Shown piece after piece: positions 4,266 through 14,685 of a DNA stretch of 14,685 nt. Position 1 is the first letter of the stretch. The number at the start of each line of letters is the position of its first letter. The stretch lies in contig JAAYYM010000172.1 in the NCBI GenBank assembly GCA_012515365.1, forward strand, positions 1 to 14,685. The letters run 5' to 3'. Under the pieces are notes generated by a model. The model was not told the DNA's origin and ran no database searches. It was given only the letters and a program-made list of their open reading frames with translations. The position numbers were made by a program, and so were the translations under genes. Source of the DNA: Clostridia bacterium (GTDB lineage: Bacteria > Bacillota_A > Clostridia > Lachnospirales > Lachnospiraceae).

Positions 4266-4292
4266 GATTTCATGAAAATCAGGAGGTGCATT

Positions 4293-5480
4293 ATGCTGAA
4301 AATTGCTTTTTTTTGTATACCGGCTTATGGACATACAAATCCTACGTTGGGTGTTGTTAGAGAGCTTATTTCTCGTGGGCATGAGGTACGGTATTATTCT
4401 TATAACATGATGAAGGAAAAAATAGAAGCGGCAGGTGCCACCTTTATTTCTTGTGATCAATATGACATTCAGATGAATCTGAAACCGGAGGATTCTCAAC
4501 GGATTGGCAAAGACATTGCATTTTTCATGGAGGTGCTGGTCAATACAACATTAGCTCTTGATGAGGCTGTTTTAGCAGATATGAAGGTATGGAAACCGGA
4601 TTGCATCGTAGGGGATTCTATGGCATACTGGGGCAAACTGACGGCGATGAAGCTTGGAATTCCGTTTGTTTCTTCTACTACAACCTTTGCTTTTAATAAG
4701 AAATCAGCATAGGTTATGGATCAGAAGTTTAGTGATCTGCCAGGTATGATCAGCGGAATGATCAAAGCAAATAAGAGCGTTAAGAAGCTTCGTGAAAAGG
4801 GATACCCGGTTAAAAATACATTATCGATCATCAGCAATGATAACCAGACCGACACGATTGTTTATACTTCTCCGGAATTTCAGCCGTTTTCTGAAAGCTT
4901 TTCAGATAAATATGTATTTGTTGGCCCATCGATACGTCCTGCAGATGAGGTGGTTGAAAAGAAGGGCAGAAAGCTTTTATATATTTCACTTGGAACAGTG
5001 ATTAATTTAAATGACAGCTTTTATCAAAACTGCATTCAGGCATTTGCAGATGCAGACTTGGATGTGATTATGTCAGTTGGTAATCTGACGGATATTTCTA
5101 AGTTAGGTGAGATACCTGCAAATATCAGGATTGAAAAGAGTGTTGACCAAATTGCAGTGTTGCAACAGGCGGATGCTTTTATTTCACATTGTGGGATGAA
5201 TAGTGCAAATGAGGCATTGTATTATAAGGTGCCAATGATCTTATTCCCACAGACAAATGAACAAAAGGGTGTGGCAAATCGAATTAAGGAGCTGGGTGCG
5301 GGTGTATTTCTTGAAGACCAGACTGTTTCAGGAATAATGAAAACGGTCAATCGAGTCATGATGGATCTCGCATATAAAGAAGCTGCCGAACAGATTGCCG
5401 AGAGTTTTTATAAATGTGGCGGTGCAAAGGCTGCAGCTGATAAAATAGAGCAGACCATTTTATATTGCAAACCAATTTAA
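4293..5480 (+). pseudogene. GT1/MGT-type glycosyltransferase interrupted by an in-frame TAG
   Basis: The start ATG at 4293 has a near-perfect AGGAGGT at 4281-4287. The N-terminal part (139 residues, IAFFCIPAYGHTNPTLGVV) matches the start of macrolide-type UDP-sugar glycosyltransferases. TAG at 4710-4712 stops it, and the same frame then runs on to 5480. The downstream part carries the donor-binding signature HCGMNSANEALYYKVPMILF and a following Gln (TNEQ), as in GT-B fold enzymes. Read through, the product would be 395 codons, the normal family length. No frameshift is needed: one base change (for example from AAG, CAG or GAG) explains the break. An ATG at 4716, three bases past the stop, could allow restart without a good ribosome site. 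The cut falls inside the N-terminal acceptor domain, so two separate functional halves are unlikely. The natural acceptor (a drug, lipid or other small molecule) is unknown. Confidence 0.8.
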
Positions 5481-5493
5481 AAAATGCTAAACT
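5465..5493 (+). promoter_or_regulatory. Promoter of the cobalamin operon
   Basis: TTGCAA (5465-5470), 17-base spacer, TAAACT (5488-5493) preceded by TGC, an extended -10. It overlaps the end of the glycosyltransferase frame and would start transcription near 5500, exactly at the head of the riboswitch. Confidence 0.55.
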
Positions 5494-5499
5494 GATTTC

Positions 5500-5650
5500 G
5501 TGGTGTTCTGCATATGCAGAATGAAAAGGGAATGCGGTGTGAATCCGCAACAGCCTCTACTGCTGTATTTGGTTGATTGTGCAGGCGTAAGCCTGGCCAT
5601 TGGGAAGTGATTCCTGAGAAGGCATTACCATAAGTCAGAAGACCTGCCAT
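5500..5650 (+). ncRNA. Cobalamin riboswitch upstream of btuF
   Basis: The hallmark elements follow in order: GAATGAAAAGGGAATGCGGT with its partner CCGC forming a conserved stem (5533-5537 with 5045-style partner at 5545-5549), AACAGCC, a hairpin CAGGC-GTAA-GCCTG (5582-5595), CCATTGGGAAGTGA, and the B12 box AAGTCAGAAGACCTGCC (5632-5648). A 16-base palindrome TTCTGCATATGCAGAA (5506-5521) forms the first stem-loop. The RNA binds adenosylcobalamin and lowers expression of the downstream genes. CCTGCC of the B12 box (5643-5648) can instead pair with GGCAGG at 5675-5680, close to the btuF ribosome site; this is a likely switching helix. No T-run follows, so control at translation is my inference. 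Confidence 0.93.
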
Positions 5651-5696
5651 AATAAAATGTTTGGATCTTGTTGAGGCAGGCATACCAAAGATGGAG
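5643..5696 (+). promoter_or_regulatory. Probable riboswitch expression platform and btuF ribosome site
   Basis: CCTGCC (5643-5648) and GGCAGG (5675-5680) are exact complements and can form a helix that competes with ligand-bound folding. The btuF ribosome site GGAG (5693-5696) follows 12 bases later, five bases before a GTG start. A transcription terminator is not visible here. Confidence 0.45.
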
Positions 5697-9700: not shown

Positions 9701-10819
9701 ATGAATAATAGAATTCATGGAGGATTTGCTCAGGGGGAAGATTCTAACGTACTTGCCTCGAACGTACTTGATTTTTCAATTAATGTAAACCCTATCGGAC
9801 CGCCTGCAGCAGTTAAGGATGCGATGAATGAGGCGATCAGGCACATAGATCGATATCCGGATCCAAGCTGCCACAAGCTTTGCTGCGCATTGGCAAATTA
9901 TCATGGAATTGAGTCATCACAGTTGATCTGTGCAAATGGAGCAGGTGATCTGATCTTTCAGGTGATTGGTGTGTTGAAACCCAAAACAGCGTTGTGTCTT
10001 GCACCTGATTTTTCGGAGTATGAACAGGCACTGCGCGTGCAGGGGACGGCAATTCAATATTATGAATTAAAACGAGACAATGGATTTGCGCTTGACGAAG
10101 CATATTTATCAATGTTGAAAAAAATACATCCGGATCTGATTGTACTGGTGAATCCACATAATCCTACCGGCAACCTCATTGACGAGAGTCTTTTAGAAAG
10201 AATCATCAGCTTTGCGCAAGCTGCCAATATAACAGTTTTGCTGGATGAGTGTTTTATTGAGTTTACGGATCGCGAGTCTTTGATCAGACGAATCAGCGAA
10301 TTTTCAAACCTCTTTTTGATTCGTGCATTTACAAAAAGCTTCGCATTACCGGGATTGAGACTTGGATATGGAGCGTGTGCAGATGAAAAACTAATTCAAC
10401 AGATCATAGCGTGCAGGCAGCCATGGAGTGTTTCTCTGATTGCGCAGGAAGCTGGATTGGCAGCACTCAAGGAACTTGCTTATCAAAAAGAAACCAAGAA
10501 AGTGATTCAAGACGAACAAGATTATCTAAAAGAAACCAAGAAAATGATTCGAATCGAGCGTGATTATCTGATCCATGAACTAAAAAAGCTGGAATTTTGC
10601 GTTTTTCCATCTGAAACGAATTTTATTCTGTTTCAAACCAATCAAGATATATATACGCAGTTAATGAGCAGGGGGATCTGTATTCGCGACTGCAGCAATT
10701 ACCGTACACTTGAACAGGGATTTTATCGTGTTGCTGTCAAACAGCATCATGAAAATCGGCAATTAATCGAGACTTTAAAATTAATCATAAATCGCACGGA
10801 AAGTTTGCCACTTACTTAG
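9701..10819 (+). CDS. cobD: L-threonine-O-3-phosphate decarboxylase (PLP enzyme)
   Basis: The protein has 372 residues. It converts threonine phosphate to (R)-1-amino-2-propanol phosphate, the side-chain donor for CbiB. The aminotransferase class I/II fold shows HGG at the start, DFSINVNPIGPP, RYPDPSC, NPHNPTG, LLDECFIEFT and the PLP lysine in TKSFALPGLRLGYG (Lys212). HisC, histidinol-phosphate aminotransferase, is the closest alternative; the N-terminal HGG and DFSINVNP blocks and the place beside cbiB favour CobD. Residues 263-276 and 277-290 are a tandem duplication (KETKKVIQDEQDYL, then KETKKMIRIERDYL), unusual for the family and lying in the helix before the C-terminal domain. Ribosome site AGGAG at 9686-9690. 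It is the last cobalamin gene visible; no cobU, cobS or cobT follows. Confidence 0.88.
   Translation: MNNRIHGGFAQGEDSNVLASNVLDFSINVNPIGPPAAVKDAMNEAIRHIDRYPDPSCHKLCCALANYHGIESSQLICANGAGDLIFQVIGVLKPKTALCLAPDFSEYEQALRVQGTAIQYYELKRDNGFALDEAYLSMLKKIHPDLIVLVNPHNPTGNLIDESLLERIISFAQAANITVLLDECFIEFTDRESLIRRISEFSNLFLIRAFTKSFALPGLRLGYGACADEKLIQQIIACRQPWSVSLIAQEAGLAALKELAYQKETKKVIQDEQDYLKETKKMIRIERDYLIHELKKLEFCVFPSETNFILFQTNQDIYTQLMSRGICIRDCSNYRTLEQGFYRVAVKQHHENRQLIETLKLIINRTESLPLT
10487..10570 (+). repeat. 42-bp tandem duplication inside cobD
   Basis: Unit one 10487-10528 and unit two 10529-10570 are in frame with the gene and differ at 8 of 42 bases. The first 15 bases, AAAGAAACCAAGAAA, are identical, and both end in GATTATCT. 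It adds 14 residues and keeps the heptad-like helical pattern. Confidence 0.85.
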
Positions 10820-11301: not shown

Positions 11302-11340
11302 ATACTTCGTATTTACACTATTGCAATACTTCGTATTTAC
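11302..11340. repeat. 15-bp direct repeat, period 24
   Basis: ATACTTCGTATTTAC occurs at 11302-11316 and exactly again at 11326-11340. Each copy contains the small inverted repeat ATAC-TTC-GTAT. Function unknown. Confidence 0.8.
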
Positions 11341-11470
11341 TGTTGGCCTTTACTATATTTTTACATGGATAAACACACCCCAGAACCTACTACAAACTTG
11401 GCATAAAATAACTGCGTCAGATCACACCACTCAGCCATCCAGAGTATAGTCTTTTTTTTACTAATATGAT

Positions 11471-11635
11471 ATAGTTAGGGGAGAGTTCTCACTCGCAGAG
11501 TGAGATACCCCTAACAAGTATAGTTAGGGGAGAGTTCTCACTCGCAGAGTGAGATACCCCTAACAAGTATAGTTAGGGGAGAGTTCTCACTCGCAGAGTG
11601 AGATACCCCTAACAAGTATAGTAGGGGAGAGTTTT
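11471..11635. repeat. 49-bp tandem array of strong hairpins (3 identical copies and a broken fourth)
   Basis: Units at 11471-11519, 11520-11568 and 11569-11617 are identical; a fourth begins at 11618, has lost one T and diverges after about 17 bases. Each unit holds an outer stem GTTAGGGG/CCCCTAAC and an inner stem TCTCACTC/GAGTGAGA with a GCA loop, joined by an AGAGT bulge on one side and TA on the other. In the first unit these are 11474-11481, 11508-11515, 11487-11494 and 11498-11505. The 3' arm of one unit can also pair with the 5' arm of the next across a 7-base loop, so two folding registers exclude each other. There are no spacers, so it is not a CRISPR array. Perfect identity points to recent expansion. 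Confidence 0.9.
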
Positions 11636-11636
11636 T
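11606..11636 (+). terminator. Terminator-like hairpin at the end of the array
   Basis: CCCCTAAC (11606-11613) of the third unit can pair with GTAGGGG (11621-11627) of the broken fourth unit with one bulged base, followed by AGAG and five T (11632-11636). It lies 34 bases before the helicase start. In the other register this arm is sequestered by its own unit, which would make it an on/off element. This is inferred from pairing only. Confidence 0.3.
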
Positions 11637-11670
11637 AGTTCTAACATAAAGTGGATGAGGTGAATGATCA

Positions 11671-14600
11671 ATGGAACAGAAATTAAAACTGGATGTTCAG
11701 TTTATACATACGATTAACTTTGCAATGCAGCAAAATTATGTACCGGTTGTGCGCAAGCTGATTGTTACGAATCTGACAGATAAGAATCTTAACGAGGTTC
11801 GTATTTCAATCACCTTTTTACCGGAATTTGCCCAAACATACGAGACCGTTATATCATTATTGGAGCCTGGAGTGCCCATGGAACTGGCACCTGTCAAGCT
11901 CCTTCTAAACGCAGAATATCTGTTGTCGTTGACAGAAAAAATGGCTGGGACTGTTCAGATAGAAGCAACAATCGGGGACGAAGTGATCGGAACCGTTAAT
12001 GATCAGATTGAATTACTTGCTTATGATGAATGGCCGGGTGCAGCAATTATGCCGGAGCTTTTATCCGCGTTTGTCACGCCGAATCACCCAATGGTAGGAG
12101 AAGTTATTTCAGAGGCATCCCTCTATTTGAATAAATGGACGAACAATCCATCCTTTACCGGATATCAACGTAACAATCCAAATGCAGTATTGCAACAGAT
12201 GGCAGCCATTTATGCCGCACTACAGGCGAAAAAAATTGCATATATCGTTCCACCTGCAAGCTATGAAAAGACAGGACAGAGAATCAGATTATCACATGTT
12301 GTTCTGGAACAGAAAAAGGGCACATGTCTTGATCTGGCTGTTCTTTATGCGTCTTGCTTAGAAGCGGTCGGGCTAAATCCACTGCTCATATTAAAGCGTG
12401 GGCATGCACTTACAGGCTGTTTCATAGAGGAAGAGACGTTCAGTGAATACATTCAGGATGATCCAGCAGCAATCACAAAACGGATGGCCGACGGAATCAA
12501 TGAGATTGCTATTGTAGAGTGTACCGCTTTCTCAGCAGGAAAAAATATAGAATTTGATGATGCATGTGTACATGGAAAAGCAGCACTTGCTGACCCCGAC
12601 GAGTTTACATTAAGTGTAGATGTCATGCGAAGCAGAGCGGGTGGGATCAGGCCAATTCCTGTACGAGTAGAAAAAGAGGGGGCTTTTTCTGCAATTGATT
12701 ATGAAACGGATAAGCAGGATAAAATCACAGATGCACCAAAAGAAATCGTGAAACCAGAAGAGCTTACAGAGCAGATAGAGCAGACGGAACAGATTAAGGA
12801 AGTCCCTGCTTTGAGACAGCAGATCTGGGAGCGCAAGCTTTTAGATTTAAGCCTACGCAATTCGCTGCTTAATTTTAGAGTGACCAGAAGCAATGTGCAG
12901 CTGATGTGTCCAAAACTATCAAAACTCGAAGATGAACTATCAAAGGGCGAGGACTTTAAGGTTTTGCCATGCCCGAATGATTTTAAAGAGTCTATGCGTG
13001 ACTCAAAAATTTTTGAAATCGAAAATAACAGGGATATGATCGAAGCAATAACAGAAGCTGAGTTTAAGAGTAAACGGATCAGGACATTTCTGGAAGATGC
13101 TCCATTGGAACAGTCATTAAAATATATTCATAGAAAAGCAAAGGTTAGTTTGGAGGAGAATGGAGCAAACACACTCTATCTGGCACTTGGTGTTTTACGC
13201 TGGTATGAGTCGGATTTAAGTGAAAAACCGCGATATGCACCATTGATCTTGCTTCCTATTGACATTGTGAAAAAGGTAGTAGAACGTACCTATGTGATTC
13301 GTCTTAGAGAGGAAGAACCACAGATTAACGTGACACTTCTTGAAATGCTGCGACAGGATTTTGGCATTGCGATTTCTTCGCTGGATCCGCTGCCATTAGA
13401 TGAAAATGGGATTCATCTTGATCTTGTTTTTAAAACTGTACGCAAAGCCATTATGGAGAAAAAGAGATGGGATATCGAAGAGCTTGCATTTATCGGCTTA
13501 TTCTCCTTTAATCAGTTCATTCTCTGGAATGATTTAAGAAACCGAAGCGAAGATATCGTGAAACATCCTGTTGTTTCAAGCCTCTTAGAAGGAAAGATTT
13601 TATGGGAGCCATTAAAGGATTGCCTTAGTGCAGAGGAGCTGGATGATCAGCTGGTACCATCAGAAATGGCAACACCATTGAGTGCGGATTCCTCACAGCT
13701 TACAGCGATCTGTGCAGCGGCAAAGGGGCAGAGCTTTGTCTTACATGGACCGCCGGGCACCGGAAAATCACAGACCATTACCAATATGATTGCAAATGCA
13801 CTGTACCAAGGGAAAAGTGTTCTCTTTGTTTCAGAAAAGATGGCAGCACTCTCTGTCGTACAGAAACGATTAGAAAAGATCGGACTTGCTCCATTTTGTC
13901 TGGAGCTCCACTCAAATAAAGCACAAAAAAGAGCAGTGCTCGAACAGCTTGACCGTACACTTGGTTTAGGGCAGCTTAAGAAGCCGGAGGATTACAAAGA
14001 AGAAGCGGAACAACTGCATACCCTGCGTCAACAGTTAAATCTGGTCATGAAAGAAATTCATCAGAAGCGTTCCTATGGAAAATCATTATTCGACGCGATC
14101 AGTGATTATGAAACCTACCTTTCTTATCAGGGAAAGGTGACGTTTTCTACGTCTCAGATTTCCAACATGTCTGAAACGACAGACAAAGAGTGGAAGGAGC
14201 TTCTTAGAAAACTTGAAGTAGCAGGAAAAGAGGCAGGTGGTATCCGTAATACACCGTTTACCTTATTTGAGAGCCGTAATTATTCTCTGGAGCTGCGTGA
14301 ACAGATCGTAGAAGCACTGAAGATGTACGATCAGCTGATTGCAGATCTTTATCAGCTGTCTGATCGAATTGCACTGTTATATGGCATGCAGAAACATCAG
14401 TCACGAGTCTATATTGATGCGCTCCTTGAAATTAATACGAATATGATGGAGGCAGAGGAAATCATTGTCCCTGCACTTAAGAATAAGAACCTTGCGTTTA
14501 AAAATGAAGCGATTCGTACACTGCTAGAACAGGGCAAGAAGATGCAGTCTTTGAGAAAAGAAATCAGAGAACAGTTTGAGGATGGCATTTTCTCTTATCA

Positions 14601-14685
14601 ATCAGAAAAGGCAAAAGAAGCACTTTTGGAGGCAAATAAAATGTGGTTCCTTCCGAAGTTTATGAAGGAAAACCAACTGTTAAAA
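11671..14685 (+). CDS. Large DUF4011-type SF1 helicase with transglutaminase-like domain, N-terminal part
   Basis: 1005 codons are open to the window end with no stop, so the C-terminus is missing. ATG at 11671 has GAGGTG (11657-11662) eight bases upstream. Order of parts: a beta-rich N-terminus (about 1-125); a transglutaminase-like region (about 138-290) with KKGTCLDLAVLYASCLEAVG (Cys219), RGHALTG (His245) and a possible acid in VECTAF (Glu283); an acidic Glu/Gln linker (about 350-382); the DUF4011 opening WERKLLDLSLRNSLLNF (about 385-402) and following region; Walker A HGPPGTGKSQT (Lys699) with motif Ia-like VLFVSEKMAAL; then a long helical, charged insert (about 770-1005) before the remaining helicase motifs. 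Proteins of this kind often end in DUF3320 or a Vsr/PLD-type nuclease and include the antiphage candidate Hhe (DUF4011-helicase-Vsr, from memory). Whether this one does cannot be seen. Antiphage defence or nucleic-acid processing is inference. Confidence 0.82.
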   Translation, partial: MEQKLKLDVQFIHTINFAMQQNYVPVVRKLIVTNLTDKNLNEVRISITFLPEFAQTYETVISLLEPGVPMELAPVKLLLNAEYLLSLTEKMAGTVQIEATIGDEVIGTVNDQIELLAYDEWPGAAIMPELLSAFVTPNHPMVGEVISEASLYLNKWTNNPSFTGYQRNNPNAVLQQMAAIYAALQAKKIAYIVPPASYEKTGQRIRLSHVVLEQKKGTCLDLAVLYASCLEAVGLNPLLILKRGHALTGCFIEEETFSEYIQDDPAAITKRMADGINEIAIVECTAFSAGKNIEFDDACVHGKAALADPDEFTLSVDVMRSRAGGIRPIPVRVEKEGAFSAIDYETDKQDKITDAPKEIVKPEELTEQIEQTEQIKEVPALRQQIWERKLLDLSLRNSLLNFRVTRSNVQLMCPKLSKLEDELSKGEDFKVLPCPNDFKESMRDSKIFEIENNRDMIEAITEAEFKSKRIRTFLEDAPLEQSLKYIHRKAKVSLEENGANTLYLALGVLRWYESDLSEKPRYAPLILLPIDIVKKVVERTYVIRLREEEPQINVTLLEMLRQDFGIAISSLDPLPLDENGIHLDLVFKTVRKAIMEKKRWDIEELAFIGLFSFNQFILWNDLRNRSEDIVKHPVVSSLLEGKILWEPLKDCLSAEELDDQLVPSEMATPLSADSSQLTAICAAAKGQSFVLHGPPGTGKSQTITNMIANALYQGKSVLFVSEKMAALSVVQKRLEKIGLAPFCLELHSNKAQKRAVLEQLDRTLGLGQLKKPEDYKEEAEQLHTLRQQLNLVMKEIHQKRSYGKSLFDAISDYETYLSYQGKVTFSTSQISNMSETTDKEWKELLRKLEVAGKEAGGIRNTPFTLFESRNYSLELREQIVEALKMYDQLIADLYQLSDRIALLYGMQKHQSRVYIDALLEINTNMMEAEEIIVPALKNKNLAFKNEAIRTLLEQGKKMQSLRKEIREQFEDGIFSYQSEKAKEALLEANKMWFLPKFMKENQLLK

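What the first reader, a model, noticed from the sequence alone, without database searches (positions are those of the whole stretch)
11471..11636. Identical 49-bp hairpin array directly before a defence-type helicase
Three perfect 49-bp units each fold into an 8+8 bp two-part hairpin, and a broken fourth copy turns the last arm into a terminator-like hairpin with a T-run 34 bases before the helicase start. Arms of neighbouring units are complementary as well, giving two exclusive folds. Possible roles: a copy-number-dependent (phase-variable) attenuator, a protein-binding RNA or DNA array sensed by the helicase, or a structured small RNA. Identical copies imply recent expansion or homogenisation.
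Basis: partly seen in the sequence, partly recalled or inferred. Interest (0 to 1): 0.8.

Follow-up and report, generated by a model that had tools for sequence, protein, structure and literature searches.

The report
Dispersed hairpin repeat with promoter-like head
The three identical hairpins in front of this anti-phage-type helicase gene belong to a small repeat that another bacterium carries in front of many unrelated genes, so they are probably not tied to the helicase but look like a spreading leader cassette with a promoter-like tip.

Summary
The array is real: three perfect 49-bp units (11470-11616), each an 8+8-bp two-part hairpin, plus a half unit (11617-11631), 39 bp before a ProA/DUF4011-type helicase ORF. 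The helicase link is not supported. An unnamed draft genome, G247, carries the element at 19 places before genes of mixed kinds and shows no such helicase; 0 of 80 examined loci of helicase relatives have it. The 'broken fourth copy' is how six of the G247 arrays end, too. The T-run starts 4 nt past the stem, so it is no canonical terminator, and predicted RBS access does not change with copy number. Two features stand out. The first repeat runs out of a -10-like box in 14 of 20 heads, with TGn in 9 of these. Between co-directional genes the element always points with them (9 of 9, one uncertain). Best reading: a lineage-restricted small interspersed repeat, working like pneumococcal BOX elements, that lies at transcription starts and puts a variable run of hairpins at mRNA 5' ends. 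Spread, transcription start and effect are untested.

The parts
11467..11475 (+). TGATATAGT: extended -10-like box that forms the head of the array
   Evidence: read directly; 14 of 20 element heads are -10-like and 9 of those 14 carry TGn; the promoter scan, which also asks for a -35 box, does not list it
11470..11518 (+). unit 1 (hairpin 11474-11515)
11519..11567 (+). unit 2 (hairpin 11523-11564), identical to unit 1
11568..11616 (+). unit 3 (hairpin 11572-11613), identical to unit 1
11617..11631 (+). terminal half unit R, with one T fewer than the other copies
   Evidence: six G247 arrays also end in a half unit
11632..11636 (+). T-run, 4 nt after the last stem; not a canonical terminator
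11657..11663 (+). Shine-Dalgarno-like GAGGTGA, 7 nt before ATG 11671
   Evidence: read directly
11671..14685 (+). DUF4011 / ProA-type anti-phage helicase ORF, cut by the end of the contig; neighbour, not part of the repeat family

Best explanation
The array is one copy of a small, lineage-restricted interspersed repeat that works like the pneumococcal BOX element. Shown (in G247 and the window): the plan is R-(S-R)n with n = 0 to 3, where R is a -10-like box running into NARNGGAGAG and S is the inner hairpin plus the 3' arm; copies lie between genes, mostly pointing with the downstream gene and mostly at a -10-like box. Inferred: transcription starts at or just after the GGGGAG of the first R, so the mRNA begins with n inner hairpins and n hairpins made of a 3' arm and the next 5' arm (the half unit supplies the last partner). 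Inferred: copy number changes by slippage or recombination between identical R segments, and the element spreads as a non-autonomous mobile sequence. In this window it is a passenger, possibly tuning start or stability of the helicase mRNA.
For: G247 has 22 sites of TNARNGGAGAGTTC against 0 for the reversed pattern. With one site inside an open coding frame dropped and two GAGAGC variants added (C61, C16), this makes 19 places. A covariance model from 1 window and 11 G247 units finds 14 hits in G247 and 15; about 10 of the 15 are its own training units, while C16, both C26 units, the second C47 unit and C85 are not. Covariation: 97.9% of cells paired, 6 pairs with changes on both sides, 0 of 500 shuffles as high; slid versions at most 48.9%. 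TGn precedes 9 of 14 -10-like heads (binomial tail about 2e-8 at 1/16); inside arrays the three bases are aag, cag, tca or taa. Of 19 places, 9 lie between co-directional genes, all in sense (C24 uncertain), 6 between divergent genes, 2 between convergent genes, 2 unknown (my reading of mechanical open frames). A second hairpin occurs 3 times in G247, each time inside this element.
Against: The window's own genome is not held. No target-site duplication or empty site was shown; no Y1 transposase in G247. No RNA data. The promoter scan does not list the head box and 6 of 20 heads lack a -10-like box. TG also stands at the same place in 2 of those 6 (C91, C5), so it may partly mark the element's edge or be chance. 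One covariation measure, further pair types, is reached by 75 of 500 shuffles. Predicted RBS access does not depend on copy number. Stem covariation also occurs in REP families (PMC3733652, passages seen), so it does not prove an RNA role. The three copies with the nested hairpin differ in their inner stems.
Confidence: 0.68

Rival explanations
1. A conserved promoter/leader module (cis-regulatory element of a regulon) kept by selection, not a parasite: a trans factor (protein or small RNA) binds the GGGGAGAGTTC start of the transcripts.
For: -10-like box with TGn at many heads; 9 of 9 sense orientation in co-directional gaps, one uncertain; R persists without a hairpin at C24 and C27.
Against: Downstream genes show no shared function (buk, lepA, TetR-like, RsuA-like, HerA-like, TIR; names recognised by eye, not scanned); a copy without a box inside an operon (C91) and copies between convergent genes (C5, C81).
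Confidence: 0.16
2. REP-like element moved by a RAYT/IS200-type single-strand transposase.
For: Short dispersed palindromes with complementary stem changes, intergenic.
Against: No PF01797 match in G247 while 5 of 14 control genomes ring; head-to-tail tandem arrays; GTAG next to the hairpin in only 1 of 12 aligned units (C91, by eye).
Confidence: 0.07
3. Copy-number-dependent attenuator or terminator specific to the helicase gene, or an array sensed by the helicase.
For: Position before a ProA/DUF4011 anti-phage-type gene.
Against: 0 of 80 loci of helicase relatives have it; 19 copies in G247, where the helicase was not found; no terminator; RBS access flat from 1 to 6 copies.
Confidence: 0.05
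4. Neutral remnant: chance tandem duplication of a palindrome without any function.
For: Tandem repeats of palindromes can arise by replication slippage (general knowledge).
Against: 19 related copies in G247, covariation, oriented placement.
Confidence: 0.04

Closest known systems
BOX elements of Streptococcus pneumoniae (boxA-boxBn-boxC)
   Same: Small interspersed repeats with a folded module in variable tandem number; reported to raise or lower expression of the downstream gene; no clear link to gene function (PMC3049150: passages and section 6 seen). The share between convergent genes, 16 of 86 for BOX and 2 of 17 with known context here, cannot be told apart.
   Different: No boxA or boxC seen by eye; the head runs out of a -10-like box; sense orientation in 9 of 9 co-directional gaps (one uncertain). 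BOX sequences were not compared directly.
REP/BIME/REPIN palindromes with RAYT
   Same: Short dispersed palindromes, complementary stem changes between copies (PMC3733652, passages seen).
   Different: No shared GTAG or CGTC tag (1 of 12 units by eye), no Y1 transposase match in G247, head-to-tail arrays.
Miniature inverted-repeat elements that carry promoters (Correia type; promoter trait recalled)
   Same: Small, non-coding, folded, can bring a promoter.
   Different: The arms vary between loci with compensation, unlike fixed ends; no target duplication shown.

Membership tests
Small interspersed bacterial repeat (general kind) | many related copies scattered in one genome, mainly intergenic | tested here: met
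   19 places in G247; not testable in the window's own genome
Pneumococcal BOX element | boxA and boxC modules flanking boxB | tested here: inconclusive
   no such flanking modules apparent by eye; not compared with BOX sequences
Pneumococcal BOX element | variable tandem number of an internal module | tested here: met
   n = 0 to 3 among loci; not tested among strains
REP/RAYT | RAYT (Y1) transposase in the genome | tested here: not met
   G247 only, a draft genome
REP/RAYT | terminal GTAG or CGTC tag | tested here: not met
   no shared tag at the ends in A1; GTAG in 1 of 12 units, C91 (by eye)
MITE | target-site duplication and fixed terminal inverted repeats | tested here: inconclusive
   arms vary between loci; no empty site available
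Intrinsic terminator / attenuator | GC stem followed at once by a T-run | tested here: not met
   0 found; 4-nt gap
Known Rfam RNA family | covariance-model match | tested here: not met
   no match at the array up to E = 5
Helicase-linked array | present at relatives of the helicase gene | tested here: not met
   0 of 80 loci (the best 80 of 111 found), 75 of them hold at least 200 nt upstream of the match

The most novel reading that the evidence does not exclude
A dispersed leader cassette that captures transcription start sites: its first repeat is the gene's own -10 and start region, so RNA begins inside the repeat and every 3' arm pairs with the next unit's 5' arm. By amplifying or deleting units the cell would tune the 5' structure, and so the stability or translation, of many unrelated mRNAs (lepA, buk, a defence helicase) independently.
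Probability: 0.22. Interest if true: 0.65.

Novelty: new variant of a known kind. Interest (0 to 1): 0.4.

Why it matters
If right, a small repeat family sits at the start sites of unrelated genes in a poorly sampled lineage and offers a natural series of 0 to 3 hairpins at the 5' end of mRNAs. It also warns against reading a repeat beside a defence gene as part of that defence system.

Tried and rejected
Helicase link: 0 of 80 loci. Terminator: none. Attenuation by hiding the RBS: mean unpaired probability of the SD 0.69-0.73 for 1 to 6 copies and 0.62-0.72 for none. Rfam: no match at the array. Phages and plasmids: no match up to E = 1. Viral contigs: exact patterns gave 0; a gapped pattern gave 5 stretches in which I see no outer arms; the model scores them 14.8-19.6 bits, the best at E = 0.0064; read as chance. 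The weak hits in G405, G514, G533 and G546 (24-28 bits) lack the plan by eye; those in G098, G443 and G460 cover mainly the T-rich flank. CRISPR was set aside because there are no unique spacers; integron attC because arms in G247 are largely of ATCA/GTCA type and the order of arms is reversed (attC recalled, not tested). Literature: seven answered searches; no title or abstract start in their listings describes this element, and the library lacks most subscription journals. A word search in PMC3733652 and PMC12306157 found no 'Lachnospir' or 'Clostridi'.

Full report
Observation. The window holds three perfect 49-bp units at 11470-11616 and a half unit at 11617-11631. Each unit is a two-part hairpin with 8 outer and 8 inner pairs. 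The region folds far better than shuffled sequence (z = -9.61, 0 of 200 shuffles). It is not coding: all six frames across the array contain stops. A canonical terminator is absent: the T-run begins 4 nt after the last stem.

Where the sequence comes from. No genome is held for the window. The CobD protein of the window finds itself on a 14,685-base contig and a nearest relative at 69%, so the window appears to be a whole contig of an unsampled organism. The nearest full-length helicase relative is 56% identical, in a Herbinix MAG; a partial one (residues 1-680, L080) is 59%. G247 shows no CobD and no helicase (one match of 67 residues, 31%), so close kinship between window and G247 is not shown. 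G247 is unnamed, in contigs, and its completeness is not told.

The element elsewhere. Of 397 genomes of one family-level sample searched with the whole window, 280 had some match; in the listed rows the array region was matched only in G247 (few candidates scored per genome and the list was cut, so this is not exhaustive). With the array alone, G247 gave 23 matches at E up to 10, 8 of them at E up to 0.001. A covariance model from 12 units (1 window, 11 G247) matched 1 of 397 family genomes (G247) and 5 of 392 order genomes, of which only G247 is convincing. About 10 of the 15 G247 hits are the model's own training units; five (C16, two C26, second C47, C85) are not. Both searches used strict filters and samples, so rare or diverged copies may be missed. 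A DNA search of 245 relatives matched 4: G247 and three weak hits, mainly in the T-rich flank.

Anatomy. The 14-base core TNARNGGAGAGTTC occurs 22 times in G247, the reversed control 0 times. One site (C83, L154) lies in an open coding frame without a hairpin and was dropped; a further GAGAGC-type match at the edge of L107, within a long open frame, was not counted either. Two loci with GAGAGC (C61, C16) were added. The resulting 19 places include arrays that end in a half unit (C61, C26, C19, C83, C34, C104), single hairpins (C91, C71, C20, C5, C81, C114, C16), R alone or with a broken hairpin (C24, C27, C11), and decayed or gapped ones (C47, C85, C74). The window's 'broken fourth copy' is such a terminal half unit. 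Arms differ between loci but stay complementary (0 of 500 shuffles reach the paired share or the covariation score, 75 of 500 reach the number of pair types; most sequences come from one genome). Arrays are homogeneous inside, down to the same variant of the TATAAT-like box: 6 of 8 within-array pairs at 96-100%, two pairs with the decayed third C47 copy at 68%; 163 between-locus pairs average 71%, with C47 and C26 at 98%. Three G247 copies hold a second hairpin nested in the inner stem; it is found nowhere else in G247 at up to 3 mismatches, though the inner stems around it differ.

Promoter-like head. Of 20 heads (19 in G247 and the window), 14 have a -10-like hexamer directly before the core and 9 of these have TGn in the right place; a 1/16 chance would give about 1. 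TG also stands there in 2 of the 6 heads without a box, so TG may partly mark the edge of the element. At the internal junctions TGn is missing. The window reads TGATATAGT-TAGGGGAGAG. A scan that also asks for a -35 box does not list it. I infer that RNA starts at GGGGAGAG. If so, the first 5' arm is not transcribed and the 3' arms can only pair with the next unit's 5' arm, which would give the terminal half unit a use. This is inference; tandem duplication between R segments explains the half unit equally well.

Placement. In G247, 17 of 19 places have a same-strand open frame that starts within about 160 nt of the first core (mechanical starts); the other 2 (C5, C81) lie between convergent genes by the longer frames. 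Nine lie between co-directional genes and all point with them (C24 has an N-run upstream and is uncertain); 0.5 to the 9th is 0.002. Six are between divergent genes, where sense orientation is trivial; two have no upstream gene in view. Genes recognised by eye include butyrate kinase (copy in the ptb-buk gap), LepA, a TetR-like regulator, an RsuA-like enzyme, a HerA-like ATPase and a TIR protein; no shared function. These names were not checked by profile scans.

Helicase. The downstream ORF matches NCBIfam antiphage_ProA over 16-1003 (1058 bits; the curated cut-off of 1500 is for the whole protein, and this ORF is cut by the contig end) and PADLOC PDC-S37.

Function. RNA folding with 1 to 6 units leaves the SD and start region equally open, so translation control by hiding the RBS is not predicted. 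Effects on transcription start, mRNA stability or 5' processing remain possible and untested.

Comparison. The closest working analogue is the BOX element: modular, interspersed, folded module in variable tandem number, no clear link to gene function (PMC3049150, passages and section 6 seen). Its share between convergent genes (16 of 86) cannot be told from ours (2 of 17). What differs is the -10-like head and the sense orientation in co-directional gaps. It is not a REP by the tests available. I rate it a new variant of small interspersed repeats.

Noticed in passing
5487-5665 (+): Cobalamin riboswitch (Rfam RF00174, 87.7 bits) ahead of what look by eye like vitamin B12 uptake genes; CobD further down is confirmed by Pfam.
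   Followed up: no
4272-5480 (+): A gene that looks by eye like a glycosyltransferase is split by a stop codon into two open frames of the same reading frame, 4272-4712 and 4716-5480.
   Followed up: no
11302-11340: Two copies of ATACTTCGTATTTAC, start to start 24 bp, in the same intergenic region.
   Followed up: no
10480-10569: 42-bp tandem repeat, 2.1 copies, inside the aminotransferase gene.
   Followed up: no
L104, L105, L106 (G247 C85, C114, C104): A second hairpin nested in the inner stem of three copies and found nowhere else in that genome at up to 3 mismatches.
   Followed up: partly
L117 (G247 C91), 1080-1131: A complete single hairpin fills the gap between two genes that look by eye like ptb and buk; the stop codon of the first directly precedes the core.
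   Followed up: partly
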